A stretch of DNA of 15,905 nucleotides from Cylindrobasidium torrendii FP15055 ss-10 (taxonomy: Eukaryota; Basidiomycota; Agaricomycetes; Agaricales; Physalacriaceae): assembly GCA_000934385.1 (NCBI GenBank), contig KN880841.1:1-15905 (forward strand). The letters run 5' to 3'. Under the pieces are notes generated by a model. That model was not told where the DNA came from, ran no database searches, and saw only the letters and a list, made by a program, of their open reading frames with translations. Below are positions 1-15,905 of the stretch, in pieces. The translations under genes and the position numbers were made by a program. Each line of letters starts with the position of its first letter. The stretch's first letter is position 1.

Positions 1-311
1 GGGCAACACGCGTTCCAGCGATGCAATCCACGACCACACCGACAAAAGAACGCAGATAGTGGCGGAGTACCGAACGCATCACAAAGCTCTGCTTGTCTTG
101 GCCACCCTCGGTGCGCTCCCTGTTTGGAAGGATTCCTTGTTGGAGTTGAAGGAAGGGGACATCAAAGGGTTTCGAGAAGATCCGCTGGTGGCAGGCAGTG
201 CCCCAGAGTCCATAACTGACCAGCAGACCCAACGAGACCGCGATAAGGAGCTACCCAGCTGGATTTGGAGGCATCTCAACGGAGCTGAAGCATCTCAAGG
301 GCTGACCGCTG
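1..311 (+). CDS. Partial KDZ transposase-like gene, 5' piece (host gene of the insertion)
   Basis: The frame is open from base 2 to 311 without a stop and enters from outside the window. It encodes the segment just before the C-terminal coiled region of Kyakuja-Dileera-Zisupton (KDZ) transposases: a helical stretch, the pattern DIKG near an acidic linker, then the hallmark SWIW (257-268). The internal KDZ gene has RWIW at the equivalent place. Fourteen residues after SWIW there is a GTGAGC donor at 312, phase 1. The internal gene has a phase-1 intron 16 residues after its WIW. Reading past the donor gives a stop at 335-337 with no family-like sequence, so the donor is preferred. The gene appears to continue at 15628 after the insert. 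The sequence is clearly different from the internal KDZ copy. The family call comes from recalled motifs and comparison with the internal copy. Confidence 0.75.
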
Positions 312-323
312 GTGAGCCACCAT

Positions 324-330
324 CTCTGGG
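324..330. repeat. Left copy of candidate target-site duplication CTCTGGG
   Basis: CTCTGGG occurs here and again at 15593-15599 in the same orientation. Each copy lies 6 nt outside the conserved ATGT start of an inverted terminal motif. Allowing two end mismatches, the repeat could be 9 bp. A 7-bp match alone is weak; the support comes from its symmetric placement and from the normal-sized 47-nt intron left when the insert and one copy are removed. Confidence 0.6.
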
Positions 331-642
331 CACCTGATGTGGTAAGTTTTCTGGAAAGGTGCCACTATCACCAAAGTCAAGTTTCACAACCGTGCCGCTA
401 TACTTCCCATCATATTTCAATGGCCGGTTTGGTTTTTTATTTCCCCCGGGTCTTCCTTATATGGCCACACTGGCCGTGACGACGCCGGCCACACCACGGC
501 CCGATGCATGACCCTGCAAGCGTCAATGATGGCGTGTCAATCTGAACTCAGGTGCGTAATTTTTTTTTGGCCAATGCCGAACGAACGGTATAGCAATGCA
601 CAGTAACTTGGTCATTCAAAAAATATGCTACGTTGTCGGTAT
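331..642. other. Left terminal region of the element, no gene seen
   Basis: Between the left end and the transposase stop codon I see no convincing exon. The region holds the terminal motif, a run of T at about 551-558, and a GC-rich patch at 461-502 with GGCCACAC twice (463-470 and 487-494) separated by related GGCCG words. Such subterminal repeats could be transposase-binding sites, but nothing here proves it. Confidence 0.4.
337..357 (+). repeat. Left imperfect inverted terminal motif
   Basis: The motif starts ATGTGGTAAGTTTTCTGG. Its partner at the right end, read on the minus strand from 15586, starts ATGTTGTAAAATTTTTGA. Over 21 positions 16 match, with no gap. The six bases outside each motif do not match. 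Confidence 0.5.
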
Positions 643-3600
643 CTACACACGTGAGTCTACAGCGGCCACATCTGTCGACAGTGCCTCTCTGATGCTATTA
701 AGCCGTTCTGTGTCCCATTTGTCCCATGTCTTACCGCGCGGCGCCTCTGTGCGCAGCCACAGAGTCAAGAAGGACTCGCGCACACGGCGCCTCCCCTCCG
801 CCTGGGCCAAGGAGAAAGAGATACGCCCACTGACAATATCTGCGGTCTCGTCCTCTCGACCAGCGCCGATGGCGCGTTGCTGCCACACACGTTCTTCGTG
901 CTTCAGAGACTCTATCACCCGCCGCATTTCCTCCTTCAGTAGCTCGACTTCCTCCCACCAACGGTCTCGGCGGGCCTTGGTTGACCACTCACATAGGATA
1001 CCTACAGAATATCTGGTCAGCATACGAAAGAAGAGACATTAATGTAGACGTACTGCGATGCATAAGGGCGTCATCCCCGACTTCCGGAACACCTCCAGCC
1101 ACCCATATCCACCTCATTGTAGAGGTCGACAGCCCTGGCTCATCACGTCGTGCCGGATGGCTAGAACGGCGTGCATTGGCCTTACGCCGGGACGAGGTTG
1201 CCCGCGGGTCACGTCCATCGAGTCGATTCAGGTTTTTGATGGCCTCGGAGTCGGTTTCGTCTACATTGAAGATGTGAATGTCGTCCTTCTCCAAACGGCG
1301 TAAGGGAAGACACCCCTCTTCACTGCCGACAAGGCAAACATAGGACTCGAATGACTCGCGGTACTTCAAGCAGAGCTCGACGATCTTTGTTTGCAGAGAG
1401 TCGATGAGTGTCTGGGCGCGAGTGCGCGCAGCCTGGCCGCTGATGAACTTGTTCCGAACGTTCAGGAAAGAACGGTGAGCGAGGAGACGATTGCGGAGGA
1501 GCTTGAGAACATCGGTACATTGTGCTGCACGAAGAGACTTCTCGATGGTGCACAATGTCTCACTTACATGTCCAGGAGAATTCCATGGCATGTATATGAT
1601 GGTGTCCTCAGGCTCGGGCGGTCCCAAACCAGAAGCACGTCGTTCGTCCTCGTCTGCACTGAGCAACTGGTCGAAGTTGTCGAGATATTTCCGCTGATGC
1701 TTCACGAAGGTCTTGAGTCGGCTGCGCAGAGCCAGTCGACGATCCAAAATCCGCCCTTCTTCTGCGGCTGTAGGACTTGTTCCAATCCGTACTTTGTCAT
1801 TACGTAGGCGACGTCTGCAGCAGAGTAAGTAATAGAGAATGAGCATAAGAGAACAACTCACTGCGCCTCCTCCAACTCGATGCCCATGATGACAAACTGA
1901 GTCTGGGTCACTGTCCCACTGTCAGACCCCTCCCCGTCTTCGCCTACATCGCTGGCGCGCTCGCGGTCCTCTTCGCGCTTGAGGTCGCGCCGCACCTCAT
2001 GTTCCGTGAGGGTATCTAGAATCACAGGTGTGAGTTTGGGAACGTAAACACCATAAAGAATAACTCACCTTCCCCAGCAACAACGTACGGATTTTTCGCA
2101 GTGTCGGGATTTGCCTCGAAATCTAAGATGTACTGTTCCCAGGTGCGCGCCAGGGCTGGTGATATAGATGCGTTGATATGTGCAAACGAGTCTTCCTGGA
2201 CAGCGAGCTCGCATGCCGCGATTTTGATTCGACGAAAGAGAGTGACTCCTACAAGACGTGATTAGTAAATGACCAACGCTGCGCGGACATGGAACTGACC
2301 GATCCCAACGAGCTTGCGATGGTTGATGTGGTCGTACACATCCTCCAGCAAGTCGTAGCGTGCACCCTCAGATTGCTCGCGAGTTATGCCCGCGAAGTGG
2401 TTGATGTCGGACCATTCTCGCTCTGGCGTCTCCCCGTCGGTGCGCCCAATACCTTGTTTGGTTTTGACGGAGTTGCACATCTCACAGTTCACGTCGTGCA
2501 CGTTTCCGTGCCAGTACGGTAGAGCGAAGATGAGCTTGTCGGCAGGAGGGAGGTTGAGACCTTGGATGACGGACGGAAGGGCCTCGAAACGCTTATGGAA
2601 ATTCTTCTTGTACTGGCAGGCGATGTCGTATGTAATGGCAAGACTTTGAGGCCTCATCCGTGACAGCGCCCAAGCGAGGCAGAAATCAACATTGCGATAC
2701 CTGGGAAATTGTTAGATACGGGTCATGAACGGAGAACAAGGCGCACTTTTCGCCCTTCTCGAGGTTTGTTGTCGAATGGATGAGTTCATGTCGGGCACAG
2801 AATGCACCGACAATACCAGTCCACTTCAGACCGACCTCTGAACGAGTCTCCTCCTGCAGTAACGCAGCGAAAACGGCACAGTCTGATTGCTGCGATGTTT
2901 CAGTAAGGACAGAGCTAGGTTATTGCAAGAGAGCTCACCGAAATTTCGGGGATGTTCGTCGAGATCCAGTTCTCGAACATGTCGATGGGCGGCTGGATTC
3001 CTAGTCCATTGTAGAGAGGAGGGTCAATGTGATTCTTGTGGATGCGGTCGCGTAGTTTCATCTTGAAGTTCGCATCAAGCGAAACGATAGGACGGTAAAG
3101 CCATCTGAAGGAATTTGGTTAGCAAGCGTATCAAAGACAAGGGTTGGCAACTCACTGGTTGTCGCGTTCATGCCAGTTGGCCGGTATGTTGACATCTGGA
3201 TGAGGGCAAGCCCAGCACTGCTGGAGAACTAGACCAGGCTCCCATCCAGCAGTGTCGAAAAGATTGCCAGAACGTAGGACGCGGGAGAGGAATGCCCATT
3301 GGCGTGTCATCCTGCCCAGCTCCTTCTCGCGGTCCACCACGGTGTCCACTCCCCAGGGATCCGTTATGCCAGACAGTGCTTGAAGGAACTTGTGGACGGA
3401 GAGTGCGGATGATACGAGAAGCATGCGGTACATGTCGAGCACAGCAATGGTAGCGCACGTATGAGGTGATTGAGTCGTCGCCGGATACAGACCGTCGCGA
3501 AAAAGCTGCTGCCAGTCTGCGATGGTCTGACCGTGCTCACAGGCGCAGAAATCTACAGCCACATGGTGAATCCCGGACGTGTCGATGAACGTCATGAGGC

Positions 3601-4404
3601 GACGTTGCTGGGGGTTGCGGGGATTGACACAGGGGAATCCGCCATGGCCAACTTGATAGACCAACCCCATGTCTACAAGGGATGTGCGTTTGAACGAACG
3701 ACCAGTCCATTCCTAATGGAAGTGAGCACGCAGACATTGATCACAACACAGGTGCATACCTCTATGCTATGGGTAGGCGTATGGCGATGACGCTGCAAAC
3801 AACACCGGGCGCAGAGAAGGAAGCTTCCACAGGTACGACAGCGAAAAAGTGCATCCGTCGTGCCATCGAGCAGTGGGCGTTCGGCGTTGGCGACATAACA
3901 TGTATTGCAGTCTGGAATACTGCACCGTGGATTATGGATGGCGTTTCCAAGACCGTGGAAGCGAATACGCTCTTGGAAAAATGTTGCCTGGTGCGTCTTC
4001 CAAGTTTTCATGGGGTCGATCTGTCCAAGCAAAGTAAGCTTCAATGTCAGGAGCTGAATGGGACCACGCACCGAGTTCTCATACGCGCCATGGCCGACGT
4101 AGGCAGTAGACTCATCAGCGTCCAGCGGCGCCGGAAGATCTGAGATGTCGCCGTTCACATCACCAAGTGTCTGCGGGCGATTGTAGACCCAGGAGTTGAA
4201 CTCGTCGTTGAAATCGCCATTGTCAAGACGTATGCGTTTGGGTGCCACAGGCTGGGAATATATGCAGTCCTCCTCGTCGATTTCCAGGTGATGGGCGGAG
4301 ACAGCATCGGAGGGCAAGGAGTCCAGCGGTCCACGGAACGCACTGTTGACGTGTGCGCGTTTGTTGGTTGTTGGGGCGCGAAAGTCTTCAACTATGGATG
4401 GCAT
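643..4404 (-). CDS. CxC2-domain KDZ transposase, complete, 9 exons, 1121 aa
   Basis: Likely catalyses movement of the element. Exons (minus): 4404-3760, 3712-3156, 3104-2939, 2889-2747, 2700-2300, 2248-2069, 2015-1862, 1814-1054, 1001-643; introns are 46-53 nt and the frame closes exactly. Residues 1-150 are low-complexity. The CxC2 cysteine cluster follows: C161, C166, C169, C189, C192, C198, C201 and histidines 206-212, then the family pattern HSIEEWTG across intron 1, GHGGFPC and FCAC (271-273). The KDZ core has CWACPHPD (381-388), SLDANF (D411), TYDIACQ (D529), PYWHGNVH and the GRTDGE..ERE signature (589-599). D411, D529 and a Glu of ERE are candidate RNase H-fold catalytic residues (inferred). 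RWIW is at 983-986, and a charged helix EEVELLKEEMRRV ends the protein. No stop or frameshift breaks it, so it could be active. Stop TAG at 643-645. Confidence 0.9.
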
Positions 4405-4701
4405 AGCAGCGTTAGTGCCAGGAGGAGCGTTATTGCGCAGTTTACTGACATATAAAGGACCATGGGGATCCTCAGCTCCTCATGTTGTCCATCGGTGTTC
4501 GGAGACCCCAGCCACCGCAAAAGGAGGAAGACAGGGCAGCAGATAGGTGGGTGCGGATGATGATGATGATGGTCGCATCACAAAAAAACTGCCTGGGACC
4601 AGGGTTTCGATCATCCGCATATAGACCTTGAGTTTGTGGGAAAATAACAAATATAATGGCAGGGTATATACTATAGGTGTACTAGAGTGCTAAATATATT
4701 G
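4405..4701. other. Intergenic region upstream of the transposase
   Basis: No exon was recognised. It holds the presumed promoter of the KDZ gene, including a TATA-like TTTATAT on the minus strand about 50 nt above the ATG (plus 4451-4457). There is also a (GAT)5 run at 4556-4570 followed by GGTCG. The 14-mer GATGATGATGGTCG (4562-4575) recurs at 8759-8772, also upstream of a minus-strand gene. The far end holds the 3' region of the next gene. Confidence 0.4.
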
Positions 4702-5390
4702 TTAAATCCAGCGCACTAGACGCATTTTGGCAATGGCAACGACCCGTCTAACGCGCTCAGGTACTTCAGCATCGCGTTCGTCGCGCTGCAAAACGTGCTT
4801 CTCCAAGAGCTCAATGCTAATCTCTCGTGCTTGGCGAAATAATGACGTTGACTTCTCGGGTTCTGCTGCAAATAACTGTGAGAACAAATGTAAATGCAGA
4901 GGAAAGACTTACAGCGAATATGCCACCAACGATGAGTCTTCCAGAGCGCGTAGAGTGATGTAGAATTTGTAGAATTTGCCTTCATGCCAAGAGCGCAGAA
5001 TATTATCGCTTCGTGACCGGTTGTGATAGCGAGGTACGATAGAGCAACAAGGTCACGCAATGAGTGGACACCAGAGGCGTTCAGTGACAGCAAGAGGCTT
5101 TCTGCGTTGAAGCTATGCAACTCGCGTGCAAGGGACCCCGAATCGAGTTCTTGAAGTGGAAGTCAGCTTTCTTGTACAATGAACAATGTGCTAAAGACGG
5201 CTCACCCTGCTCTCCGGCTGGTAATAGGTCCAGCCTGGCTTGCATAGCCGCGAGGTGGAGGCGGACGATTCTACACCTTGTTATTGACGTACATACGAGC
5301 CAATGCAGACTCTACTTACCCTTGAGCGGTGTAGGAAGGCTGCTCGAGGTCGGCGCTGTTAAAAGCAAGCAGGGTATAATCTTTGATCAT
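4702..5390 (-). CDS. Unnamed family protein, copy C, 178 aa, 4 exons
   Basis: Function unknown; I do not recognise the family. Exons (minus): 5390-5320, 5270-5206, 5149-4913, 4865-4702; introns are 49, 56 and 47 nt and the frame closes. The ATG at 5390 sits in a CACC context. The protein aligns almost without gaps to the neighbouring gene at 5775-6509 over its first ~110 residues. Shared features are a RLDLLPA/RLELPA turn, then a helix and LLLSLNASGVHSLRDL (64-79), which also resembles the gene at 6665-7862. Introns fall at residues 24 (phase 2), 46 (phase 1) and 125 (phase 1), nearly the same places and the same phases as in that neighbour. The C-terminal 50 residues are charged and helical. 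No signal peptide or membrane segment is evident. The AAG acceptor of intron 2 is the least certain junction, though a CTGAC branch precedes it by a normal distance. Confidence 0.75.
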
Positions 5391-5422
5391 GGTGCGCAGT
5401 CGTTCTGGACACGAAGGATGGC

Positions 5423-5632
5423 TTAAGTATATGCACGGGCATTAGAAACCCCATCGGTATCAGTATATGACTTACGACTGCCGCAGCGGCGACGCGTACT
5501 AGTCTGCGTATCTGCCAACGCGGATGCATCTAAAAGGGGTAAGTACCGAAAGAGGAAGGCCATTGTGATCGGTAATGGCGGATCGCGCTCGTGGTGCACA
5601 GTGAAGATTGCTAGATTGCACTGACAATCCAC
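5423..5632 (-). other. Unassigned open stretch between copies B and C
   Basis: The minus strand is open here, with a possible ATG near 5564 (MAFLFRYLPLLDAS) and a good GTAAGT donor at 5477 followed by a CTAAT branch and an AAG acceptor near 5424. Splicing there does not join in frame to the start of copy C. It may be an untranslated leader exon with an intron, an eroded gene or chance. I could not build a gene from it. Confidence 0.25.
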
Positions 5633-5774
5633 CTTGGTTTTTGAAATTGAACAAGTGCTGCTGATTGGATTGCCTTCACAGGGGATGGGACTCGTCGCAT
5701 GGGAAGGAATGTTTTATCAGCAGCGGAAACGCAGGCAAATGCTCCTAGTTTGTATCGGAGTTTTAAGTACAAGA

Positions 5775-6509
5775 CTACCAGCGTGGAACAGGAGCTGCTA
5801 GGCTACCAAGAATATCCCATTCGATGGGCCATTCACCGGCGCCCACGTCGACATCGGCAATGTTATTGACTATAGCCAACGGTGGCCGTGGGATATCTGC
5901 AAGACAAACAGCCACCCTCCGCCATTTATCTCGAATTTTTTGACGCTGTAGACCGGCTATAAAGTTCTGTTAGAGGTACAGAAGCAAACGTGTAGGCACA
6001 AGACTGACGAATCGAGCGGAACCTGCCAGGTTGTGCCTCTTCATCCCCACGAATTGCATCAAGTATGCGTTGGAAATCGCGCCAATTATGCCAGTTTCGA
6101 AGTCCGAGAGCGATACGAAGATTAAGCATATGGTGAAGCGAGAGGGTCAGGCCAGCCATTAGACGGAAATCACGCATGTCGCGAACGCCACAATCGCCGA
6201 GTCTATGCATAAGGAATGATGCGCTGTGCGTCGCTAGACGGTGCTCCAGGGCCGTGGTCGACATGTCGGCTGAAATACATGTTTAGAGCTCCGCTATCAT
6301 CATGCGAAGGGGCATACTATTGGCGGGGAGTTCCAGTCTGACACCAGTTCGGCAGTACTCAAGATAGAACTGGAACAATCTACCAATAAATGATTGAGAA
6401 AAAATTGTTTTGAGTCGACCATGATTCGCTACCTCTGTTGTTTTGTATCCGGCCATTCCGGTGCCTCTGTCTCACGAAGCAATATCCTGTCGGCACGCAA
6501 AGCGGGCAT
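5775..6509 (-). CDS. Unnamed family protein, copy B, 193 aa, 4 exons
   Basis: Function unknown. Exons (minus): 6509-6433, 6379-6318, 6269-6009, 5956-5775; introns are 53, 48 and 52 nt. The third intron has a GTCAGT donor and a perfect CTAAC branch, and the frame closes at TAG 5775-5777. The first ATG (MPALRADR) is preferred because the start then matches that of copy C. The shared core is FLMHRLGDCGVRDMRDF (65-81), followed by a helix ending IALGLRNWHNW. It aligns with ALHRKLNAVGVHTPEDL in the gene at 6665-7862. Intron phases 2, 1, 1 match copy C. The tail carries RQKIRDKWRR and a Pro/Asp-rich end. The frame remains open some way upstream of the ATG, so a longer first exon cannot be excluded. 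It is probably soluble. Confidence 0.75.
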
Positions 6510-6664
6510 AGTACGAGCCACAGATCTTGGAAAGGTCAAATATGATTGCTGGCCTTTAAGTACTAATTCACGATGATAATGTAACGATGGAATCAATGAT
6601 GGGTAACGAGCGGAAGGTCTAAAACGAATAGTTTGTGGCCAAAGCCCTGGAAAAGTTCATGGAG
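6510..6664. other. Short intergenic gap between copies B and A
   Basis: This 155-nt gap must hold the terminator of the upstream gene and the promoter of copy B. I saw no clear element in it. Confidence 0.3.
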
Positions 6665-7862
6665 TCAGTAAATATCCGGCCCTGCCGCACGCGCAAATGC
6701 TTTCAGGGCACTCTTGAGGCGTCTCCACTGGCTACGTAGCTCTAACTCCAGGCCAAGGCGAAACTGGACGAGGGCGGACGAGTCGGGAAGTACAACAGAA
6801 GCGATAGTGAGAAGGTCTTCAGGCGTGTGCACTCCAACGGCGTTGAGCTTACGATGAAGCGCCCCATTGTAAGTACACTTGAGGAAGCGCTCTATCGTCT
6901 GGGGACGGAAGGTTGTACCAGCTTCGTAGGGAACCCATGAACCTCGGCTGTACGACTGGTCCTCGGAGACTGGAATACATCCATCAGCAAGGAATTGTGG
7001 AACAAAGAAGACCATACCTTTATACAGCTGTGCTGTACCAAGCTCAAGGTCGACAACCGGGAAGTTAGGCTCCAAACTAGCCATAAGACAGAGCATCCAC
7101 CTAGAAGATAGTCAATGTCAGTATGTACGACCAAGCCGACGTTACTGGCACGTACTCTCGTGCCTCTTTGGCCTCGATACGCTGCTCGCGCGTCCTTGGG
7201 ATGTATAGGCTCCGGTGATCCAGCTCGTGGATTGGGATGCGTAGGTCGTGCTGCGAGCGAGATGCAACGCCGTCTATCTGGCCTAGAGTTGGGCGGCGTC
7301 GAGGCTCGTCGAGATGAGGGATTGGATAGGGAGCAGACTCAGAGGCCAAGCGCACGAGTGCTGGGCGCACGGGTGCTCGGCGCGCGGGTGCTGGGCGCAC
7401 CGCGCTGTCGAGGTTGGCTAGAAGACGGGCTGCCGACGTTGTGCGAGCCAGGCTGGGAGCACTGGTCGACGTAGCAACAACAACGGTAGGTTGAGCACTT
7501 GCATCTGCAGGCGTCAGCGCTGGCGCTGGCTCTGTTTTGACACGACTGTCTTGCGGGTTGGGAGTCGGGCGTCGCGACGTCTTGGACACAGCCATGGCCG
7601 GTGTGGATGCAGCCTTGCTGGCGTTCGCATGATGGCGAGCACTGGAGTCCTTGTGAGCAAGACCGCTCTGTGTCCTGATAAACCCGAAAGCATCGAGCTT
7701 CCTTTGTGGGCTAGGTGAACCGTCACTAGCAGTGTCGGAGGTGTAGGAGACATTGGGATCGCGCTCGCGTAGGCGTCCGTCCCAGGACGTGTCCATGGCG
7801 TCTGCGGCATCACGGGCGCCAATGTCTGAAGAGTCCTCGACGTCAGGCGGGTTCTCAGCCAT
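6665..7862 (-). CDS. Unnamed family protein, long copy A, 380 aa, 2 exons
   Basis: Function unknown. Exons (minus): 7862-7156 and 7100-6665. The 55-nt intron has a GTACGT donor, TACTGAC branch and TAG acceptor. Residues 1-~200 are probably disordered: acidic at the start, then rich in Ser, Pro, Ala and Arg, with pentapeptide repeats of the type RRAPV/RPALV encoded by 15-bp DNA repeats. From about 237 the protein looks folded: a segment KGMVFFVPQFL, then RGSWVPYEAG, then HRKLNAVGVHTPEDLL (318-333) and a helix ending RLGLELELRSQWRRL. That last part matches the core of the two genes downstream. Copies B and C lack the disordered arm. Stop TGA at 6665-6667. The sequence shows no catalytic motif I know. 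Being next to copies B and C in the same orientation suggests tandem duplication with later divergence. Confidence 0.75.
7350..7394. repeat. Three 15-bp tandem repeats within copy A
   Basis: Units are GCGCACGAGTGCTGG, GCGCACGGGTGCTCG and GCGCGCGGGTGCTGG, at 7350, 7365 and 7380. They keep frame and encode the Arg/Pro/Ala pentapeptides in the disordered arm, so the number of copies could vary without breaking the gene. Confidence 0.8.
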
Positions 7863-7985
7863 TTGGGGCGGGAATTATGATAGAGAGAAAACTAGAGAGA
7901 AAAAAACGTGATGCGCTGTACTTATACCGCCGATCATTCTGATGCAACGCACGCGAAGGGAGGGAGGGACAATGCAATGTGAAAT

Positions 7986-8694
7986 TCAGGACGGGTGCTG
8001 GTAAAGTAAGGATTTCGCATGGTGTGCAGAGCGTAGCCAATGAAGGACGTAGTCATCTCTCTTGCAAGCCTCGACAATATCCTCCACTGCGCATAGGCTG
8101 TCCTCGAAGACTTTGATCAGCTCCCGCGAGTACCAGTAGCCTTTAGAGGGGCCCTCCTCCGTGAAAATGCGACCGGTTGCTCGGCCAGCACTATTGCGAA
8201 TGTCGGAGACTTGGTCCTGGTGCTGCTTGAGCACAGCTCGCGCATTGGGGGGATCGGAAAAGAGTTCCTGGACGATAGTCTCAACGTAGTCGGCCAGAGA
8301 AGCACCCTGAAGAGCTTGAAGACGGGCAACTTCTCCACGAACGAACGTCAGCTCGCGCTCAGAAACAGAGATCATGAGAGCTGGCTCCCTGTAGCAGGTA
8401 AGAAAGGCAGCGTCCATTATGAAATGACCACGCACCTGGGGATTATCGTGCGTTGGACTATTCCTCGCCTCTGCGCAGGCTCCTCCCGCGCATCCTCAGA
8501 CCGAGCTTCGAGCTTCTTGCGATAGATACGTTTCTTCTGCTTGAGTATTTTCCGGCGGTGACTGCCGGAGCAGCATGTGAGTGGGTATGTGCTCTGCCGT
8601 GCACAATTGCGCACCTAGCATAGTATTTGGCATCAGCTACTGCCTGCGCCTGCCGACGCTGGTCATCAGTTTGGTATTTACGAGGCCGCGCCAT
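7986..8694 (-). CDS. Small protein with basic N-terminal helix, 202 aa, 3 exons
   Basis: Exons (minus): 8694-8615, 8561-8436, 8388-7986; introns of 53 and 47 nt, frame closing at TGA 7986-7988. The start MARPRKYQTDD is short, basic and AT-hook-like (RPRK). It leads into KYYASHRRKILKQKK and IYRKKLEARSEDARE, a long basic helix that could contact nucleic acid. I recall a KY-T-EE...YY..HR..I...KR pattern in many uncharacterised mushroom proteins, but know no assigned function. Residues 70-202 form a second, more neutral part, with SERELTFVRGEVARLQALQG and several helices ending in HHAKSLLYQHPS. No membrane segment is seen. The gap to the next gene on the same strand (copy A, ATG at 7862) is only 123 nt. 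Nucleic-acid binding is inference from charge alone. Confidence 0.75.
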
Positions 8695-8911
8695 GATGAA
8701 ATGAACACAGTTCGGACCGAAGTCGAGAAGTGGGTGGTGGAAGAGACGACACACCGAGGATGATGATGGTCGATGATCATATGTAAAGTGTAGAAATGAA
8801 TGGGCGCGTTGTTTCCATTTCTCGATATTATCCCGATCAAAACAATTAAGTGCTTTACACCACTTCGAAGCTCACGAATTGCTCAATGTGAGATACTATC
8901 ATGTACCTTCA

Positions 8912-8927
8912 CATACTTCGAAGTATG
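8912..8927. repeat. Perfect 16-bp palindrome CATACTTCGAAGTATG
   Basis: The sequence is its own reverse complement. Its core ACTTCGAAG also occurs at 8862-8870, about 50 nt away. A dimeric protein-binding site is one possibility, chance another. Confidence 0.6.
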
Positions 8928-8929
8928 CT

Positions 8930-8956
8930 GGCTAAAAATCTGACCCCGTTTTAGCC
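8930..8956. repeat. Hairpin: GGCTAAAA and TTTTAGCC around an 11-nt loop
   Basis: An 8-bp perfect stem (8930-8937 with 8949-8956) starts two bases after the 16-bp palindrome. It lies downstream of the gene at 9129-10101 on the minus strand, so it could shape that mRNA's 3' end, but no rule for fungi supports this directly. Confidence 0.5.
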
Positions 8957-9128
8957 CAAACACGTAGAAAAGGCAGTTGTGAACTAACGTATCTGCCGAT
9001 CGCAACTTGTCTATCTTGTCTCGCTAACACACTGCGAAGGAACTAGCGTAAATTCAAGGAAATATGGTAGCACCATGATATTGAGCTTCTAGGTATAACT
9101 GCCTCAATCTAGGAGATACGCATGACCT

Positions 9129-10101
9129 CTACACACGCAAAATGACAGTACCAATTCTCCCAGCATCTACACGCGCCATGTACGCAGCTACCGCATCCTG
9201 TTTGGAATCCCACGACTCGTAGCATGCTCCCTCAATTCCAGCTACGCTCGGAGCAGCCTCTGCGCTATTGAAACTTCAGCCCTCTGTATGAGATCAAGAG
9301 ATGGCGCTTACTACGATGCATACACCCCAGGTGTTAGGCCAACGTAGACAGAGTGCCAGCTAACACGCGTGGCTCCATTCTGAATCGGACTTCCTGAAGC
9401 AATCTTGTGCTTGGTGGGACAGCGGTACAGTGTCGTAAGGATAGGGCGGGCACGAATTGACTGTCTGGTGACAGCGGTAAGCCCTTTCTTGACAGCAAAT
9501 GCATATGCCGCCTCCGCGGCAGCGAGGCTCGTATATCCCAAGTAAACGCTTCCGGATTGACCGCTTACACACCGTCTGCAGTCCTCCCTGCATACGCGAC
9601 ATCAGTGGACGTTCTTTGGCCGTATTTACTACGCACCATTTCGCATAGACTCCCGGCTCACTAGCACGAAATGCAACGTAGGCCACAGCAATACCTTGGT
9701 GCTTCTTATCCCTTTTGAGCAGCGATTTAACGGGGGATCCTTTTTGAGCGGCTGAATGAGCAACGGGCCTTGTATTTCATTCGGTCAGTAAATTGCAGCG
9801 GTAGTGTAGTTCGAAAATATGCGTACCACTTGTCAGTGACGGAAGTACCCTCGGGATTTGCGTTCTTTATTTCGTAGAGTGTATAGTCTTTGCTGGTTTG
9901 GCGCAATTGGAGGTTGTTGATTGCCTTCGTCAAATCGTCCACGTCCTCGTCAGACTCCGAGCTCGATGATATCTCGATTTCAGTGACATGACCATCATCG
10001 TCGTGTGGATCGCTCCGTTGCCCTGGCAGAATCCTTGCTGTGGGACGCGGTTTCTTGAATTTTCCTGAGGACGAGGCGGTCTGATCGGAGCTCGAAGCCA
10101 T
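9129..10101 (-). CDS. Protein with two RNase H1-N-terminal/viroplasmin-like domains, 271 aa, 4 exons
   Basis: Exons (minus): 10101-9827, 9768-9637, 9587-9324, 9273-9129; introns are 58, 49 and 50 nt, with TACTGAC and CTGAT branches in the first two. Residues 1-~110 are Ser- and Asp-rich and probably disordered. Domain 1 (about 118-172) reads VAYVAFRASEPGVYAKW, then the EDC..CVSG...GSVYLGYTS turn and an Ala-rich helix. This is the pattern of the small hybrid-binding domain at the N-terminus of eukaryotic RNase H1, also found in caulimovirus viroplasmin. Domain 2 (about 212-265) repeats it: WHSVYVGLTPGV, GIEGACYESW and a helix AVAAYMARVDAG. No RNase H catalytic domain follows, so binding of RNA or RNA:DNA hybrid without cleavage is the likely role (inference). 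The third intron ends at AAG and was chosen because only that choice completes domain 2. Confidence 0.8.
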
Positions 10102-10323
10102 TGGGGGTGGTCAAGGAAAGAAAGAGACCAGGAACAAGGACCGTAGTGGTCCGTAGATACGTGGAGTGACGCAAAACGGAGGATGTTTGAGTAATTTCAC
10201 GCTTTACACTCCGACCTCAATTTGGCTCCCACGGGTCTCGATTTGGTACTCCTGGACGAAGATGGCATCACAACCAAACAAGCACACACACAATGATAAA
10301 TTCACGCGCTCTACAAAGAATAT
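10102..10323. other. Intergenic region between the two viroplasmin-like genes
   Basis: This 222-nt gap has no exon that I could support. It should hold the promoter of the gene at 9129-10101 and the 3' end of the gene at 10324. A short direct repeat, GGTCCGTAG-like, lies near 10140-10157. Confidence 0.3.
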
Positions 10324-11120
10324 CTAAAGGATGTAAACATAGGCGGCGATTGTCCCGAGGATAAGAAGCACGGCAATAATCCAGTGCTCCCCAAGAGATA
10401 CGACAATGTGGCTGGAAAAGTGTAAGTGCATGCACGGTACATATAGACGATCGCAACGTACGGGCGAGGCGTGGACAGCGCACGGATTTGAACACGGCCG
10501 GCAGCCAGCTCGCCATTGAAGTAGCGTAGCGCGTGTGCTTGAGATCCAGCCTTGAAGCAGTGGCTGTTCGAAACACGTTGAACGTACGACATGGCCTCCG
10601 CACTTTAAGGAAGTCAGTCGAGTCACTCTCAAGCAACCTTAGAATGGAACGCACCAGTCAAGAACGACCCCCACGCGAGTTCCATTTGTGACGCAGTAGA
10701 AGGTTTTGCGACCTTTCCCAAAGATGGAGCGCTCGAGAAGGATGGGGTAGAGCTGCCGAGGGACCTCCAAGAAGGCACGGCCTGTGATGAAAGGTGTCGA
10801 CGAGGCGTCGACGTACTCGTGGGGCGCAATGAGTGGATCGTAGATGTACACTGGCTGATGTTAGTTGCGTGAATATCCCAGGCATTTACGACAAACGTAC
10901 TTGTGTTCCAGGTAGGCGGTGAGCCAGGCTGTATTCCCAGTTCTGCGTTCATATGCTCGTTGTGCGCAACAAACATAGTGTCTGCGGGATCTCCAGTGCA
11001 CGGGACATAAGTTGGAGGCGGCGGCGGCGGGAGAGATGTCAGAGACGCCTTTTCGACGCTGCTCGACACAGCAGCAGGGACTGCAGCGCCGAGGACGACG
11101 ACAGAGGCAGGTTCCGACAT
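10324..11120 (-). CDS. Tail-anchored viroplasmin/RNase H1-N-terminal-like protein, 214 aa, 4 exons
   Basis: Exons (minus): 11120-10901, 10850-10655, 10602-10462, 10411-10324; introns 50, 52 and 50 nt with CTAAC, CTGAC and CTTAC branches. Frame closes at TAG 10324-10326. Residues 1-73 are Ser/Ala-rich with a Pro6 run. A middle segment reads MYIYDPLIAPHEYVDAS. One hybrid-binding-like domain spans about 122-178: KTFYCVTNGTRVGVVLD, then AEAMSYVQRVSNSHCFKAG and a helix ending GELAAGRVQI. The usual Trp after VLD is replaced by Cys139, at the exon junction. The last exon encodes a hydrophobic helix WIIAVLLILGTIAAYVYIL (196-214) that ends the protein, which fits a tail-anchored membrane protein. The phase-2 intron in codon 139 is at the same aligned place as the one in codon 136 of the neighbouring gene at 9129. 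An in-frame ATG at 11192 could extend the N-terminus by 24 residues. Confidence 0.75.
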
Positions 11121-11763
11121 GCTAGTTTGTGGGGGAGAAACTAAAGAGTTTGTATTTACCTTTTCAACGCTTGGTTGTATCCCTCGGCACATACCGTAGT
11201 TTTTCTAGAAAATAAACGCCACTCGGGGGTGCCCTCGAGTCCCTTATCTGCACCCACATGGTCAGTTCAGCTCCAATCAGTGGCAGAACACTAGCGTGGA
11301 CCCACCTTGCAACGCACTAGCCCATACGCGTCCCCGCAAATTTGGGTCTCCGCATTAGTGCAGCAAAAATACTTATCGAGAAACACTTGGTCACGCCCTG
11401 CGGCGTACCCAACGTTACCTCGTTCTCGTCGCGTCCCATCCCGTTCTCGGTCGCATTCTGTTCTACGTTTTTTTGTTCAATTTCCTGCGAGAGATGGACA
11501 CTGAAGGCGGATACCTTCTGGATGTTCCAAATAACGCTGAAAGTGGTCCATCAGCCACCTCACAGTGAGCCACAAGTCTCTCGACGCATTCGCAAGCTAA
11601 CTTGCCTATGCTTAGGTCGTCTCTCATGTTTTCGCAAGACACCCTTGTTGCTGCACCAACCCAGACCGACGCCAGGTGTGTATGGCTTGCAACTTGCTTC
11701 TTAACACCTTGACGAGTACGCGATAGTGACAAGACCCCATCCGTGTCAGAAACTCCCCCGACG
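11121..11763. other. Divergent intergenic region
   Basis: This 643-nt stretch separates a minus-strand and a plus-strand start, so it should contain both promoters. It has pyrimidine-rich runs (for example around 11455-11480) of the kind often found above fungal starts. No exon, TATA box or repeat stood out. Confidence 0.4.
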
Positions 11764-14700
11764 ATGGTCAATAACAATGCATTCAGGTATGTGGTCTATG
11801 TTATCCACCGACGAAAGGCTCACGGTCACCAGAACCGTGCCGTGGACCATCCTCCCCAAAACCCAGTCGCAAACACTAACGGACAAAGAGGCGAAACGAC
11901 GCGCCGCTTTGAAGATTCCCAAGGCCGATCGGAAGACCAAGAAGGGCTGGATGGAAGGTAGACGCGAGGAGTTATTCCGTCCTCTACTCATCGGACTGGC
12001 CGACGCTCTTGAAGTTTCCCCCGCCGCCTACGACCTGAAGCTCAAACAGCTTAAGCGAATGTACTTTTGGCATTTTCCCTGGCCCATGCTCGACACAGAA
12101 GAGTATCCGTCTGTCGAGGTTTTTGGCGAAATCGGTGACTACGACCCAAGTCTGCCTCTACCACGTCCGAAAGCCATGGATCCGTTGCAGGAAGGGGAGC
12201 GGGCAGACGCCATGCAGAAGAAGGGCAAAGTGAGCTTACACTGCTTCTTCGAGAACAAGGTCACTCACCTCCCATTGCGTCGCAGGCGCTAGTCGCATGG
12301 ATTAAACGCCAATTCAACCGCCAATCCGATCTCAAAAGCTTGCTGAAGCAACGCAAAGGCGATATTGAGCAAGATCCGTATGCGGGCGCGATGTTGATGC
12401 TGGCCGGAATGTCCAGGCGCGTGCGAGCTGCCCATGGCTGGCAGCACTTCATGCGCACACAGTACGTGTCGGCCGGTATAGACAAGGCGTTTGCGGAGGA
12501 ATGGGGTGCCCATGCTAAGGATGACGATGAGGAGGCCCTGAAGTTTCGCGAGAACCTGGCAAAAAGAATGTTTTTCAAGCTCCCAGAAAGCGAGAGGGAA
12601 GCCATCAAGATGGAGGCGAAGCAATACGCCGTGGAGAAAAGGGAGGAAATCAAAGCATCGTTGGAAGCCGGCCCTTCTACCGACCCATCGGTCATTGCCA
12701 CGTACGTTTCCCCAGCGTCTACTGCACATCCAAATCGTTGACGCCGACGCAGATGTGTGAGGAACACACCGACGTTCCTGGCGAAGGTATTCCGTGTAGT
12801 CGAGCGCACAACAGGCTTGAAGCTGTACGCAATGGCTGCTGGACCGATGGCTATGTATGGCGGGAAGATTGGCTTCTTTGAGTAAGTTAGCGAGACACAT
12901 CAACAGGATTGACAACTTACTTCACACTCAGTATCTCGACCACCAAACAGGGCGTCAATGCACCAATGAGTTTCCGAGAATACCTTGGTACGAAACGCAT
13001 GGATGACACAGTCATATTATACCAGCGCTACTGCGAAGACTTCTACTCCCAAGCAGAGCGCGACGCATTTGTGGTCCCCGATCCATCTATCCCCACCGAT
13101 TGGCCCAGCGACATCGAACCGCGCGTTGCGAGTACCGAATCCCGCTCTTCTTCGTTCTCTCTGGAAGGGTTGGCCGTACCAGCAGCTGAGGATGTTGACG
13201 TTGATGGCGATGACGGAGATCCAGATGAGCAGCAAGATAAAGAAGCGGAGGCGTCCAGCAATGTGTTGGAAGGAAATACGGCAGCCCGCAGGCAAGCCAG
13301 TGATGAAAATGGTCGAGGTCGAGGTCGTGGTCGCGGACGTGGTCGCGGACGTGGTCGTGGTCGCGGACAGGGTGGTCGGGGAGGTCGAGTGTCGCGCGGT
13401 CCTGCAGCCAGTCCTACAAATTCAGACGCAATTCCTGGCCCAGTTGTTAGGCCACAAGCAAATGATAATAATGAAGACGAACCAGAGGCGGAAATGACAC
13501 CTGAGCCAGAGGATGGACTTGATGTAGAGGGTGGCCAGCGTTCGCGGCGTCGACTGCCTGAAGTCCTTCAAGACGACGACGATTTCGAGGATGATCTGCC
13601 CATGCAGACAGGAGAGTTGTTGGCCCAGCTGCCCCCAAGATCCAAACGTCCACGAGAATCAAGGCCTGGGGCGTTGAGCGAGCTCTCGGATGATGAGGAC
13701 CATGATATGCGCCCTCCACCGGCGAATCGTCCTCGCTTGGACACCCAGCGGCCTAGACCTCGTCCTGCATGGCTAAAAAAAACGGCGGAGCACGTAGAAA
13801 GTGCGAAAGAAACAATGGAAAGCCATCCTAACAATCATGATATGTCTGGTGCCCAGCTTCCAGATGATGAAGACGCACCTGTTGATCACCCTTCACCGAC
13901 AACGCAGAGCCTCCCCGATAGCTCAATCGTCCCTCCTTCCATGCCAGAAAAGTCGCAGAGCGATGGTTCGTCCTCTACCACGGCAGCGCGCCCAATGTTT
14001 GATCCCGCACACTCTCCATCTCCTCCACCTGAGGACGACTCTGGACCTGTGGATGCTCTGGTCTTGACACAGGCAGTTGATGGTCGTGCACCAGCGCACG
14101 GTTCGGACGAGAACGACGTTATGGAGGGAACAGCGCCGCGTCGGTCGGGAAAAGAGATTGTTGAGGAGGGACTACGCGGCTGCTTAGAGCACGCGCAGTT
14201 ACAATGGCTGGTGTCCCCTTGTCGCGAGTTTCTGGAAGCGCCAGGTGGCGAAGACCTTGTTCCACTTCTTATGAAGCTGATCAACATTGAGAGGATGTAT
14301 GTGCTGGCCGAATTTCGCGAGAAGAAGCGGCCAGGAAAAGGAGATCGAACAGAGTGGTTTGCGGGTCCAAGGCCAAAGCCACTTGATCTGTGGGTGCGGA
14401 ATGGGAGATGCACTAGATTGAAAAAGCGATTAGCAGTGAGGTCTGTCGCGGAAATGGCGCGCGAGTGGAAGCAATGGTATCGGAAGATCCAGCCGGAATG
14501 GAGAGAGGAAGAGGATACTCATCTCGCGTGTGGGGTTTATGGCGAAGACTGGACAAGTTGGTGGTGGCCTGGGCAGAACGGACTGCTGAGCTTGGTGGCG
14601 TGCTTGTCGTGGTGGAGGGAAGGCATCATCACGAATCATGTGACAAGCACACACGCTGCTGACCTGGGTTGCTGGACCGAGGCATTTAATGATGTCATGT

Positions 14701-14765
14701 ACATGATGACCGGCGTACTCATTAGTCTGCCGTCGCTGGCGCCAGAGCGTTTTCGTGTAAAGTAG
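11764..14765 (+). CDS. Large uncharacterised protein with Arg-Gly tract, 932 aa, 5 exons
   Basis: Exons: 11764-11786, 11833-12229, 12286-12701, 12753-12881, 12932-14765; introns are 46, 56, 51 and 50 nt and the frame closes. The 23-nt first exon (MVNNNAF) has a GTATGT donor, CTCAC branch and CAG acceptor; the start is the least certain part. Residues 1-~390 look folded, with AKRRAALKIPKADRKTKKGW, LADALEVSPAAYDLK, and FRVVERTTGLKLYAMAAGP..GGKIGFFD. Then come acidic disordered stretches and an alternating Gly-Arg tract (449-478), an RGG-like motif typical of RNA-binding proteins, with basic clusters such as PRSKRPRESRP. The C-terminal ~200 residues are Trp-rich (EWKQWYRKIQPEW, WWWPGQNGLLSLVACLSWW). 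I recall multicopy mushroom proteins with a similar GxNGLLS..A..WW end and no assigned function. It is the only insert gene on the plus strand. RNA binding and nuclear location are inferred. Confidence 0.8.
13311..13371 (+). repeat. GGNCGN hexamer repeat coding for (Gly-Arg)n
   Basis: About ten units of GGTCGN/GGACGN-type hexamers run in frame and encode the alternating Gly-Arg tract of the large plus-strand protein. Such arrays expand and contract easily. Confidence 0.9.
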
Positions 14766-15399
14766 CTGAGTAGCGGTGTAAGTAGCAGCAGTTAGAATAT
14801 TCCTTACCTTTTCCCCGTGAAGTAGACGCTGAATAATATCCTTGGGACACGGAAACTTAACGAACTCGGGAAAAGCTTGGTTTGCTGTGAACTTCCGGCG
14901 CGAACGCCTCGCGAAATTACGCTCAAACAATCGGCAACTTGCTATTACAACACCAAAGCACGGTCTGCAAGATTATGAACAGGAAACGCGATGAACTTCA
15001 CCAAAAATTGAACGAAGGGTGTTTTCCTCGCTGATCCTCGCTGCCACAATGCTCGAAATAAGAAAACGTTGAGAGGCTGTCGTAAAAAATAACACATCGA
15101 CAATAACGCACATTCAAAAACCAGCGACCAAATGGAATGGAGATGTATATTGCGCCACATGTCGCGCAGTGCCAAATCAAGCCGAAATTCCGGGAAAAGA
15201 GGACCCAGCCGACTCACGTATATCAACGAAAGCCTCTAGCAGTGCTTTTCACCGCTGGGGCATACGCAGCGCACGATTTCGAGTGCCAATTTGCGTGATC
15301 GGGTGGTTTCTTTTGCGTATGTCGGAGTTTGAATGCGAGGCGCGCCGACGGCTGCCTGCGCTGCGAGCAACAGCGATCAACAATGTCCTAAATTTAGAA

Positions 15400-15562
15400 A
15401 ATAGCCGATTGTCGCTGGCAAGGCACAACCGGGGGCGCGCAAGTTAACGGGTGCACTGCGACCGGTGAGCCACGTGGCAAGATACCAAAACGGGAAGGTG
15501 GCGGTGCAAAATTAATCGAATAGCCGCGCTGATTCGAAACATACATACTACAATAGCCGCGC
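15400..15562 (+). repeat. Subterminal AATAGCCG words
   Basis: AATAGCCG occurs at 15400-15407, and the longer AATAGCCGCGC at 15519-15529 and 15552-15562, the last two 33 bp apart and all within 200 bp of the right end. Repeated subterminal words are common transposase-binding sites, but the left end has only a weak relative (TGCCGCTATA near 393-402). Confidence 0.5.
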
Positions 15563-15565
15563 GTT

Positions 15566-15586
15566 TTTTCAAAAATTTTACAACAT
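15566..15586 (-). repeat. Right imperfect inverted terminal motif
   Basis: Read on the minus strand from 15586 it starts ATGTTGTAAAATTTTTGA, partner of the left motif at 337-357 (16 of 21 positions match). It lies 6 nt inside the right CTCTGGG copy, the same spacing as at the left end. Confidence 0.5.
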
Positions 15587-15592
15587 GCCCTC

Positions 15593-15599
15593 CTCTGGG
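15593..15599. repeat. Right copy of candidate target-site duplication CTCTGGG
   Basis: Same word and orientation as 324-330. Joining 312-330 to 15600-15627 gives a 47-nt intron starting GTGAGC, with a GTTGAC branch-like site and a GACAG acceptor. Confidence 0.6.
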
Positions 15600-15627
15600 A
15601 AGGAAGTGCCCTGTTGACGTGCGACAG

Positions 15628-15905
15628 CGCTCCGACTCAAGTGGTTCAAGTTATACGCAAGGGCTCGACGAACTCAAGAGGCCGTCGATTTGACCCTGCG
15701 TGACATGACCAACTTCAGCAGAACCATGGATTCAGAGGCAAAGATGTGGGGTGCGCGCTCCCAATCGGGAGCTGGTAGGCAATGGTCACACCCAGCTGGG
15801 GTTGAGGGGCAGCTTGACCCGTTGTTTGAAGTAGGAGCACAGGCGTACGCGCTGAAGCAGCAGCGTTTACGCCAAGACATGAAGAAATCCGCCGATGCGA
15901 AGTTC
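15628..15905 (+). CDS. Partial KDZ transposase-like gene, 3' piece (continuation of the host gene)
   Basis: The frame is open from the CAG acceptor (ending 15627) to the end of the window and continues beyond it. It begins LRLKWFKLYARARR, matching the internal KDZ exon that starts ILCEWSTKARRDRW, then a helical stretch ending KMWGARS, and later GAQAYALKQQRLRQDMKK. That last segment resembles the AYA..QA...R pattern that follows the coiled region in KDZ transposases. The first two bases complete a phase-1 codon, exactly as the donor at 312 requires (Ala results). Similarity to the internal copy is low, so the host gene belongs to another KDZ lineage. No stop or frameshift is seen in either piece. 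The family call is by recalled pattern and internal comparison; alone it would be weaker than with the left piece. Confidence 0.7.

What the first reader, a model, noticed from the sequence alone, without database searches (positions are those of the whole stretch)
312..15627. A 15.3-kb insertion sits in a conserved intron of a KDZ transposase gene
Seen: plus-strand KDZ-like coding sequence ends at a phase-1 donor (312) and resumes after a phase-1 acceptor (15627). The internal KDZ gene has a phase-1 intron at the same alignment point (16 residues after WIW, just before ILCEW; host 14 residues after WIW, just before LRLKW). Removing the insert and one CTCTGGG copy leaves a 47-nt intron; the other 27 introns of the window are 46-58 nt. 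Inference: a large KDZ transposon jumped into an older KDZ gene, a transposon-in-transposon nest that leaves both reading frames whole.
Basis: partly seen in the sequence, partly recalled or inferred. Interest (0 to 1): 0.9.

Follow-up and report, generated by a model that had tools for sequence, protein, structure and literature searches.

The report
Jumping gene inside another's intron
In a wood-decay mushroom, a 15-kb jumping gene that carries its own transposase and seven companion genes has landed in a tiny intron of a different jumping gene's transposase; this is a very clear example of a known kind of nesting, and it delivers a complete, precisely bounded element of a poorly described superfamily.

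Summary
Confirmed and sharpened. The window is one whole contig of a draft assembly that matches Cylindrobasidium torrendii FP15055 ss-10. The insert is a KDZ-superfamily DNA transposon, window 331-15592 (15,262 bp), flanked by an exact 7-bp target-site duplication, CTCTGGG. A second full-length copy in the genome (15,211 bp, 74.6% identical) has the same two ends and a different exact 7-bp duplication, so the boundaries are fixed independently. The flanks are one KDZ transposase gene: two uninterrupted relatives carry the same phase-1 intron at exactly this junction (46 and 54 nt), against 47 nt when insert and one duplication copy are set aside. Host and insert belong to different KDZ families. 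The element has eight genes; nonsynonymous divergence between the copies is well below synonymous for each (ratio 0.05-0.20). The visible host codons are also intact and constrained. The intron position needs no special cause: introns are 13% of a related host gene, the second copy sits in coding sequence, and all eight KDZ genes or pieces checked share the intron. Splicing of a 15.3-kb intron is untested and unlikely. Nested transposition is textbook; the newer part is the complete eight-gene element.

The parts
1..311 (+). Host KDZ transposase gene, exon part upstream of the conserved intron (contig starts inside it; codons from base 2)
   Evidence: Open frame, 92% amino-acid identity to C394 over 103 residues and part of one hit on C29; dN/dS 0.05-0.07 together with the downstream part
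312..330 (+). 5' part of the host's phase-1 intron with donor GTGAGC, ending in the first CTCTGGG copy (324-330)
   Evidence: Sequence; aligned with uninterrupted 46- and 54-nt introns
324..330 (.). Target-site duplication, left copy, CTCTGGG
   Evidence: the second copy on C413 has GCAGGAA on both sides
331..15592 (.). Complete KDZ-superfamily transposon, 15,262 bp; starts CACCTGATGTGGTAA, ends TTACAACATGCCCTC
   Evidence: Ends identical to those of the C413 copy; 74.6% identity over 14,896 aligned columns
331..401 (.). Left terminal region: degenerate terminal repeat (ATGTGGTAA at bases 7-15) and GCCGCTAT from base 64
643..4404 (-). KDZ transposase gene, 10 exons, 1,104 aa; CxC2 cysteine cluster and KDZ domain; candidate catalytic D, D and E present
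   Evidence: Pfam KDZ 2.9e-47, CxC2 6.2e-30; dN/dS 0.05 against the C413 copy; residues; model of the C413 protein
1002..1053 (-). The element's own phase-1 intron at the alignment point where the host gene was hit
4702..5390 (-). Companion gene 2, 178 aa, no Pfam family; weak similarity to genes 3 and 4
   Evidence: dN/dS 0.15
5775..6509 (-). Companion gene 3, 193 aa, no Pfam family
   Evidence: dN/dS 0.19; model
6665..7796 (-). Companion gene 4, 342 aa (start may lie upstream, near 7862), no Pfam family
   Evidence: dN/dS 0.18, or 0.20 with the longer start; model
7986..8694 (-). Companion gene 5, 202 aa, no Pfam family
   Evidence: dN/dS 0.08; model; in the C413 copy the stop lies beyond the stretch compared
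9129..10101 (-). Companion gene 6, 272 aa, two RNase H1 N-terminal (Cauli_VI) matches
   Evidence: Pfam 5.1e-17, 2 stretches; dN/dS 0.15
10324..11120 (-). Companion gene 7, 214 aa, hydrophobic C-terminus by eye, no Pfam family
   Evidence: dN/dS 0.10
11494..14765 (+). Companion gene 8, 987 aa, RG-rich middle, no Pfam family above cut-off; divergent from the other seven genes
   Evidence: dN/dS 0.14; weak tblastn matches of its first 459 residues in the KDZ contigs C278 and C423
15521..15592 (.). Right terminal region: ATGTTGTAA at bases 7-15 from the end; two GCGGCTAT about 32 and 65 bp in, inverted to the left one
   Evidence: the same in the C413 copy
15593..15599 (.). Target-site duplication, right copy, CTCTGGG
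15600..15627 (+). 3' part of the host intron, ending in CGACAG
   Evidence: Sequence
15628..15905 (+). Host KDZ transposase gene, exon part downstream of the intron (contig ends inside it)
   Evidence: Open frame, 88% identity to C394 over 95 residues

Best explanation
A 15,262-bp, eight-gene DNA transposon of the KDZ superfamily moved into the ~47-nt intron of another KDZ transposase gene that belongs to a different KDZ family. It duplicated 7 bp of target (CTCTGGG). Shown: boundaries, duplication, identity of both flanks as one gene, open element genes, absence of decay in the visible host codons. Inferred: the element's own transposase (DDE residues on an RNase H-like core) made the jump by cut and paste; the accessory proteins help it move or be expressed; the host transposase is now probably silenced or truncated, because a 15.3-kb intron carrying a gene in antisense just inside is unlikely to be spliced where introns are about 50 nt. 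The intron location is most likely chance plus tolerance.
Confidence: 0.95

Rival explanations
1. Assembly chimera: the element and host pieces were joined by the assembler.
For: Fragmented draft of 494 held contigs; both known copies end about 320 bp beyond the element on each side, which looks like assembly breaks at repeats (inference).
Against: An exact 7-bp duplication at exactly the ends that an independent copy also defines is not expected from a false join, and both flanks belong to the same gene in register.
Confidence: 0.03
2. Targeted entry: the element recognises KDZ genes or this conserved intron.
For: The site is the intron present in 8 of 8 KDZ genes or gene pieces examined; KDZ domains were found on only 21 contigs of a 29.3-Mb assembly, so a random hit on one is unlikely.
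Against: The only other copy found sits in a Ty3/Gypsy gag-like reading frame with an unrelated 7-bp target. Two sites cannot show a preference for sequence.
Confidence: 0.04
3. The insert is spliced out as a giant intron, so that both transposons stay active.
For: Donor, 3' splice site and the last 28 nt of the intron are untouched; visible host codons carry no stop or shift, and 24 synonymous against 6 nonsynonymous derived changes.
Against: All 31 modelled element introns are 46-58 nt and those of the C394 host gene are about 50; the insert has an antisense gene ending 312 bp inside. A recent insertion explains the intact codons equally well.
Confidence: 0.04
4. The edges are two different genes.
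For: Both lie at contig ends, so the full gene is unseen.
Against: Both match one gene in C394 and in C29, contiguous and in the same orientation, at 92% and 88% identity to C394.
Confidence: 0.01

Closest known systems
Kyakuja transposons of Agaricomycetes (Kojima 2025, PMC12730594; abstract and passages seen)
   Same: KDZ superfamily, 7-bp target duplication, first bases CA, no long inverted repeats
   Different: Kyakuja is described with 5'-CA..TG-3' ends and no TIR, and the families characterised there carry a TET/JBP gene; here the ends are CA..TC, bases 7-15 of the two ends are inverted repeats (8 of 9), and no Tet_JBP domain was found in the held assembly
KDZ1, KDZ2 and KDZ3 of Cryptococcus neoformans (PMC12810828; passages seen)
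   Same: KDZ transposase with a cysteine cluster, elements of about 9-11 kb caught inserting in a reporter gene; KDZ2 and KDZ3 in introns and exons
   Different: 139-241-bp TIRs, 4-8-bp duplications, CxC1 cluster; the passages seen give no companion-gene set; those jumps were caught in action, this one is inferred
Zisupton and Dileera (8-bp duplications)
   Same: Same superfamily of transposases
   Different: 8-bp duplications against 7 bp at both sites here
Nested transposable elements in general (recalled)
   Same: One transposon inside another with a target duplication
   Different: Both partners are KDZ elements, and the site is a short conserved intron

Membership tests
KDZ superfamily DNA transposon | KDZ transposase domain (PF18758) above the curated cut-off | tested here: met
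   161.6 bits, cut-off 26.6
KDZ superfamily DNA transposon | Associated CxC cysteine cluster | tested here: met
   CxC2, 104 bits, cut-off 27
KDZ superfamily DNA transposon | DDE residues on an RNase H-like core | tested here: inconclusive
   D394 and E580 invariant and D512 nearly so (P0001 numbering), all present in the window protein and placed as in an RNase H fold in the model; but no Foldseek match at E<=0.001, middling Z, and activity not tested
KDZ superfamily DNA transposon | Short target-site duplication, 7-8 bp in described lineages (4-8 bp in Cryptococcus) | tested here: met
   7 bp exact at 2 of 2 copies; definition
Kyakuja | 7-bp target-site duplication | tested here: met
   definition
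Kyakuja | 5'-CA..TG-3' termini without TIR | tested here: not met
   CA..TC in both copies, with a short degenerate inner repeat
Kyakuja | Transposase falls in the Kyakuja clade | not tested
   No named Kyakuja, Dileera or Zisupton reference sequence was in hand
Zisupton / Dileera | 8-bp target-site duplication | tested here: not met
   7 bp at 2 of 2 copies; neighbouring bases differ
Transposon nested within a KDZ gene | Uninterrupted counterpart of the target | tested here: met
   C394 and C29; related copies, not alleles

The most novel reading that the evidence does not exclude
KDZ transposons of this type are large autonomous machines that need their seven conserved companion proteins to move, and they preferentially settle inside other transposons (2 of 2 copies here), living as parasites of parasites; two such lineages with synonymous divergence of roughly 0.7-1.5 persist side by side in one genome as single, recently inserted copies, perhaps refreshed by horizontal transfer.
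Probability: 0.15. Interest if true: 0.6.

Novelty: new member of a known kind. Interest (0 to 1): 0.35.

Why it matters
KDZ transposases are numerous in mushroom genomes (21 contigs with a KDZ domain in this one), yet the introduction of the 2025 paper seen here says that of the KDZ groups only Zisupton was well characterised with its repeats and duplications. This case gives two full-length copies of one family with identical ends, exact duplications and eight genes under constraint, so that a transposition assay and gene-by-gene removals can be designed. It also shows two KDZ families meeting in one locus, with an intron position shared by all eight KDZ genes or pieces checked in this genome. 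The nesting itself is an ordinary process.

Tried and rejected
Termini of the host's own element: C394 and C29 are alignable over about 9.4 kb, but no convincing target duplication was found.

TET/JBP: by eye I first took the 646-aa companion gene of C394 for a TET/JBP enzyme. Pfam gave no match, no solved structure matched by sequence, and no Tet_JBP domain was found in the held assembly. I dropped the idea.

Homologues of gene 8: the search scored 7,993 candidates and kept none, probably because the RG-rich stretch chose the candidates; uninformative.

More copies by terminal motif: 12 and 8 hits with up to one mismatch, the two known copies included. I looked at 8 of the 12 and 8 of 8; beyond the two known copies none continued as this element. 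Four of the 12 were not looked at. Four that I saw share a flank and belong to another repeat. A 20-kb stretch of C24 next to one hit had no match to the element.

First frames for parts of genes 3 and 4 were wrong and gave dN/dS of 1.06-1.80 with stops; they were replaced by the models and serve only as an accidental negative control. The gene finder also returned low-scoring antisense or overlapping models, which I dropped. In C394 my model calls a 60-nt intron that the public model lacks; searches used my model, and the public one is preferred.

The flanks of the C413 copy have no Pfam match. Foldseek gave nothing at E<=0.001.

Papers: Iyer et al. 2014 on KDZ (recalled) was not held. Among titles and abstract openings listed I saw no KDZ-in-KDZ nest; these are listings only, and the one paper holding all terms (on Ectocarpus) was not opened. 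Of 12 papers holding the word Kyakuja, passages of two were read.
Full report
Where the window lies. The window is the whole of contig C410 of a 29.3-Mb, 494-contig assembly. A search with the element's transposase found an 87% identical protein, CYLTODRAFT_494956 of Cylindrobasidium torrendii FP15055 ss-10, on a public contig of 15,858 bp, the length of contig C413 here. Public host-family proteins likewise lie on contigs of 17,113 and 175,780 bp, the lengths of C394 and C29. I infer that the organism is this agaric. The held assembly seems incomplete: a third relative (P0002, 52% identity over 80% of the query) lies on a public 3,620-bp contig, and no place with such a match came up here.

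The observation. The plus-strand frame 2-311 ends at a phase-1 donor, and the frame resumes at 15628 after AG. CTCTGGG occurs at 324-330 and 15593-15599. Setting aside 331-15592 and one CTCTGGG leaves 47 nt. In the uninterrupted relatives the introns at this junction are 46 nt (C394) and 54 nt (C29), both phase 1. The host flank 1-330 matches only these two other places, at 87% and 79% DNA identity (3 of 3 candidates scored). The public models of the two relatives (P0077, P0078) read GLTAALRLKW across the junction, as the window's flanks do. Both flanks therefore belong to one KDZ gene. In C394 that gene has KDZ (169 bits) and CxC2 (104 bits) domains.

The element. The DNA of both ends of the insert is found in one other place, C413. 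There the homology ends at the same first and last bases, and the flanks carry a different exact 7-bp duplication, GCAGGAA. The two elements are 15,262 and 15,211 bp and align end to end at 74.6% identity over 14,896 columns, with 681 gap columns. The ends are CACCTGATGTGGTAA and, read inward from the right, GAGGGCATGTTGTAA; bases 7-15 match at 8 of 9. A GCSGCTAT motif lies about 64 bp inside the left end, and about 32 and 65 bp inside the right end in inverse orientation, in both copies.

Genes. A two-sequence gene finder on the aligned copies, favouring synonymous over nonsynonymous change, gave eight genes that I kept: the transposase and six companions on the minus strand, and, divergent from them, one 987-residue gene on the plus strand. 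In both copies the eight start with ATG and stay open over the length compared; the C413 copy ends two codons earlier in gene 4, and its stop in gene 5 lies beyond the stretch compared. dN/dS between copies is 0.05 (transposase), 0.15 (gene 2), 0.19 (gene 3), 0.18-0.20 (gene 4), 0.08 (gene 5), 0.15 (gene 6), 0.10 (gene 7) and 0.14 (gene 8), with dS 0.70-1.50. The models were chosen partly by the same signal, so these ratios lean low; wrong frames tried by accident gave 1.06-1.80 with stops. Apart from the transposase, only gene 6 has a Pfam match above cut-off: two RNase H1 N-terminal domains. Genes 2 and 3 are weakly similar (E 3e-4), and genes 2 and 4 more weakly still (E 0.08). Weak matches to genes 3, 4, 5 and 8 (E between 0.003 and 4e-5, composition correction off) lie on the KDZ contigs C278 and C423, which hints that part of this gene set is shared more widely.

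Host against insert. In a tree of 28 of 91 transposases, chosen by me, the element family (3 rows) joins six rows of Mycena, Roridomyces and Favolaschia at 100/100, and the host family (2 rows) joins Hymenopellis at 98/95; both sit on long branches, and the deepest split between the two halves is weak, 76/67. They are different KDZ families. The visible host codons (194 compared) have dN 0.044 and dS 0.645 against C394, and 24 synonymous against 6 nonsynonymous derived changes on the host side. The host gene had not decayed, so either the insertion is recent or the gene is still used.

How special is the site? Introns make up 12.7% of the C394 host gene, so landing in one is unremarkable. The phase-1 intron after the WIW motif is present in the element (52 nt), the host (47, reconstructed), C394 (46), C29 (54), C168 (55), C423 (49) and C278 (49; a 43-nt alternative is possible), and the public model of the C413 protein is spliced there too: 8 of 8. 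It is an old feature of these genes, which is why insert and host share it. The second copy sits inside an open frame related (50-58%) to the first large frame of an element on C414 that by eye has a zinc knuckle, reverse transcriptase and integrase motifs, that is Ty3/Gypsy. Both copies are thus inside other transposons, one in an intron and one in a reading frame. KDZ domains were found on 21 contigs (36 matches), so a hit on a KDZ gene is rare by chance, but two sites prove no preference.

Mechanism. Shown: boundaries, duplications, one target gene, open genes. Inferred: cut-and-paste by the KDZ transposase with cuts staggered by 7 bp; help from the companion proteins; loss or truncation of the host transcript. 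KDZ elements of Cryptococcus have been caught inserting in introns and exons of a reporter gene (PMC12810828, passages), so the process is known.

Verdict. It is a clean transposon-in-transposon nest, a new member of a known kind, with a useful by-product: two complete copies of an eight-gene KDZ element.

Noticed in passing
G000 C413:326-15536 (loci L020, L021): Second full-length copy of the element, 74.6% identical, inside a Ty3/Gypsy gag-like reading frame, with 7-bp duplication GCAGGAA.
   Followed up: yes
window 1-330 and 15593-15905; C413 both ends: All four contig ends lie 313-330 bp from the element. Such symmetry suggests assembly breaks where both targets are repeats whose near-identical copies are on short contigs not held here.
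   Followed up: partly
window 643-4404: The window's own transposase was not among the public proteins found; the best match was the 87% copy on C413, so this gene seems unannotated or annotated in pieces.
   Followed up: no
window 9129-10101: Gene 6 carries two RNase H1 N-terminal (Cauli_VI) domains, an unexpected companion for a DNA transposase.
   Followed up: partly
window 4702-7796: Genes 2 and 3, and more faintly 2 and 4, are weakly similar and may be old tandem duplicates; a 139-aa gene of the C394 element looks alike by eye.
   Followed up: partly
C394 about 2265-11536; C29 about 80950-90120: The host's relatives are themselves multi-gene elements of about 9.4 kb with a 646-aa companion of unknown family; their ends were not found.
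   Followed up: partly
L040, L041, L042, L044: CACCTGATGTGGTAT, one base off this element's end, recurs inside a different repeat with a constant left flank (CGATTTTTGTGTTTTTCGTCACGCTACAGT); coincidence or a shared end motif.
   Followed up: partly
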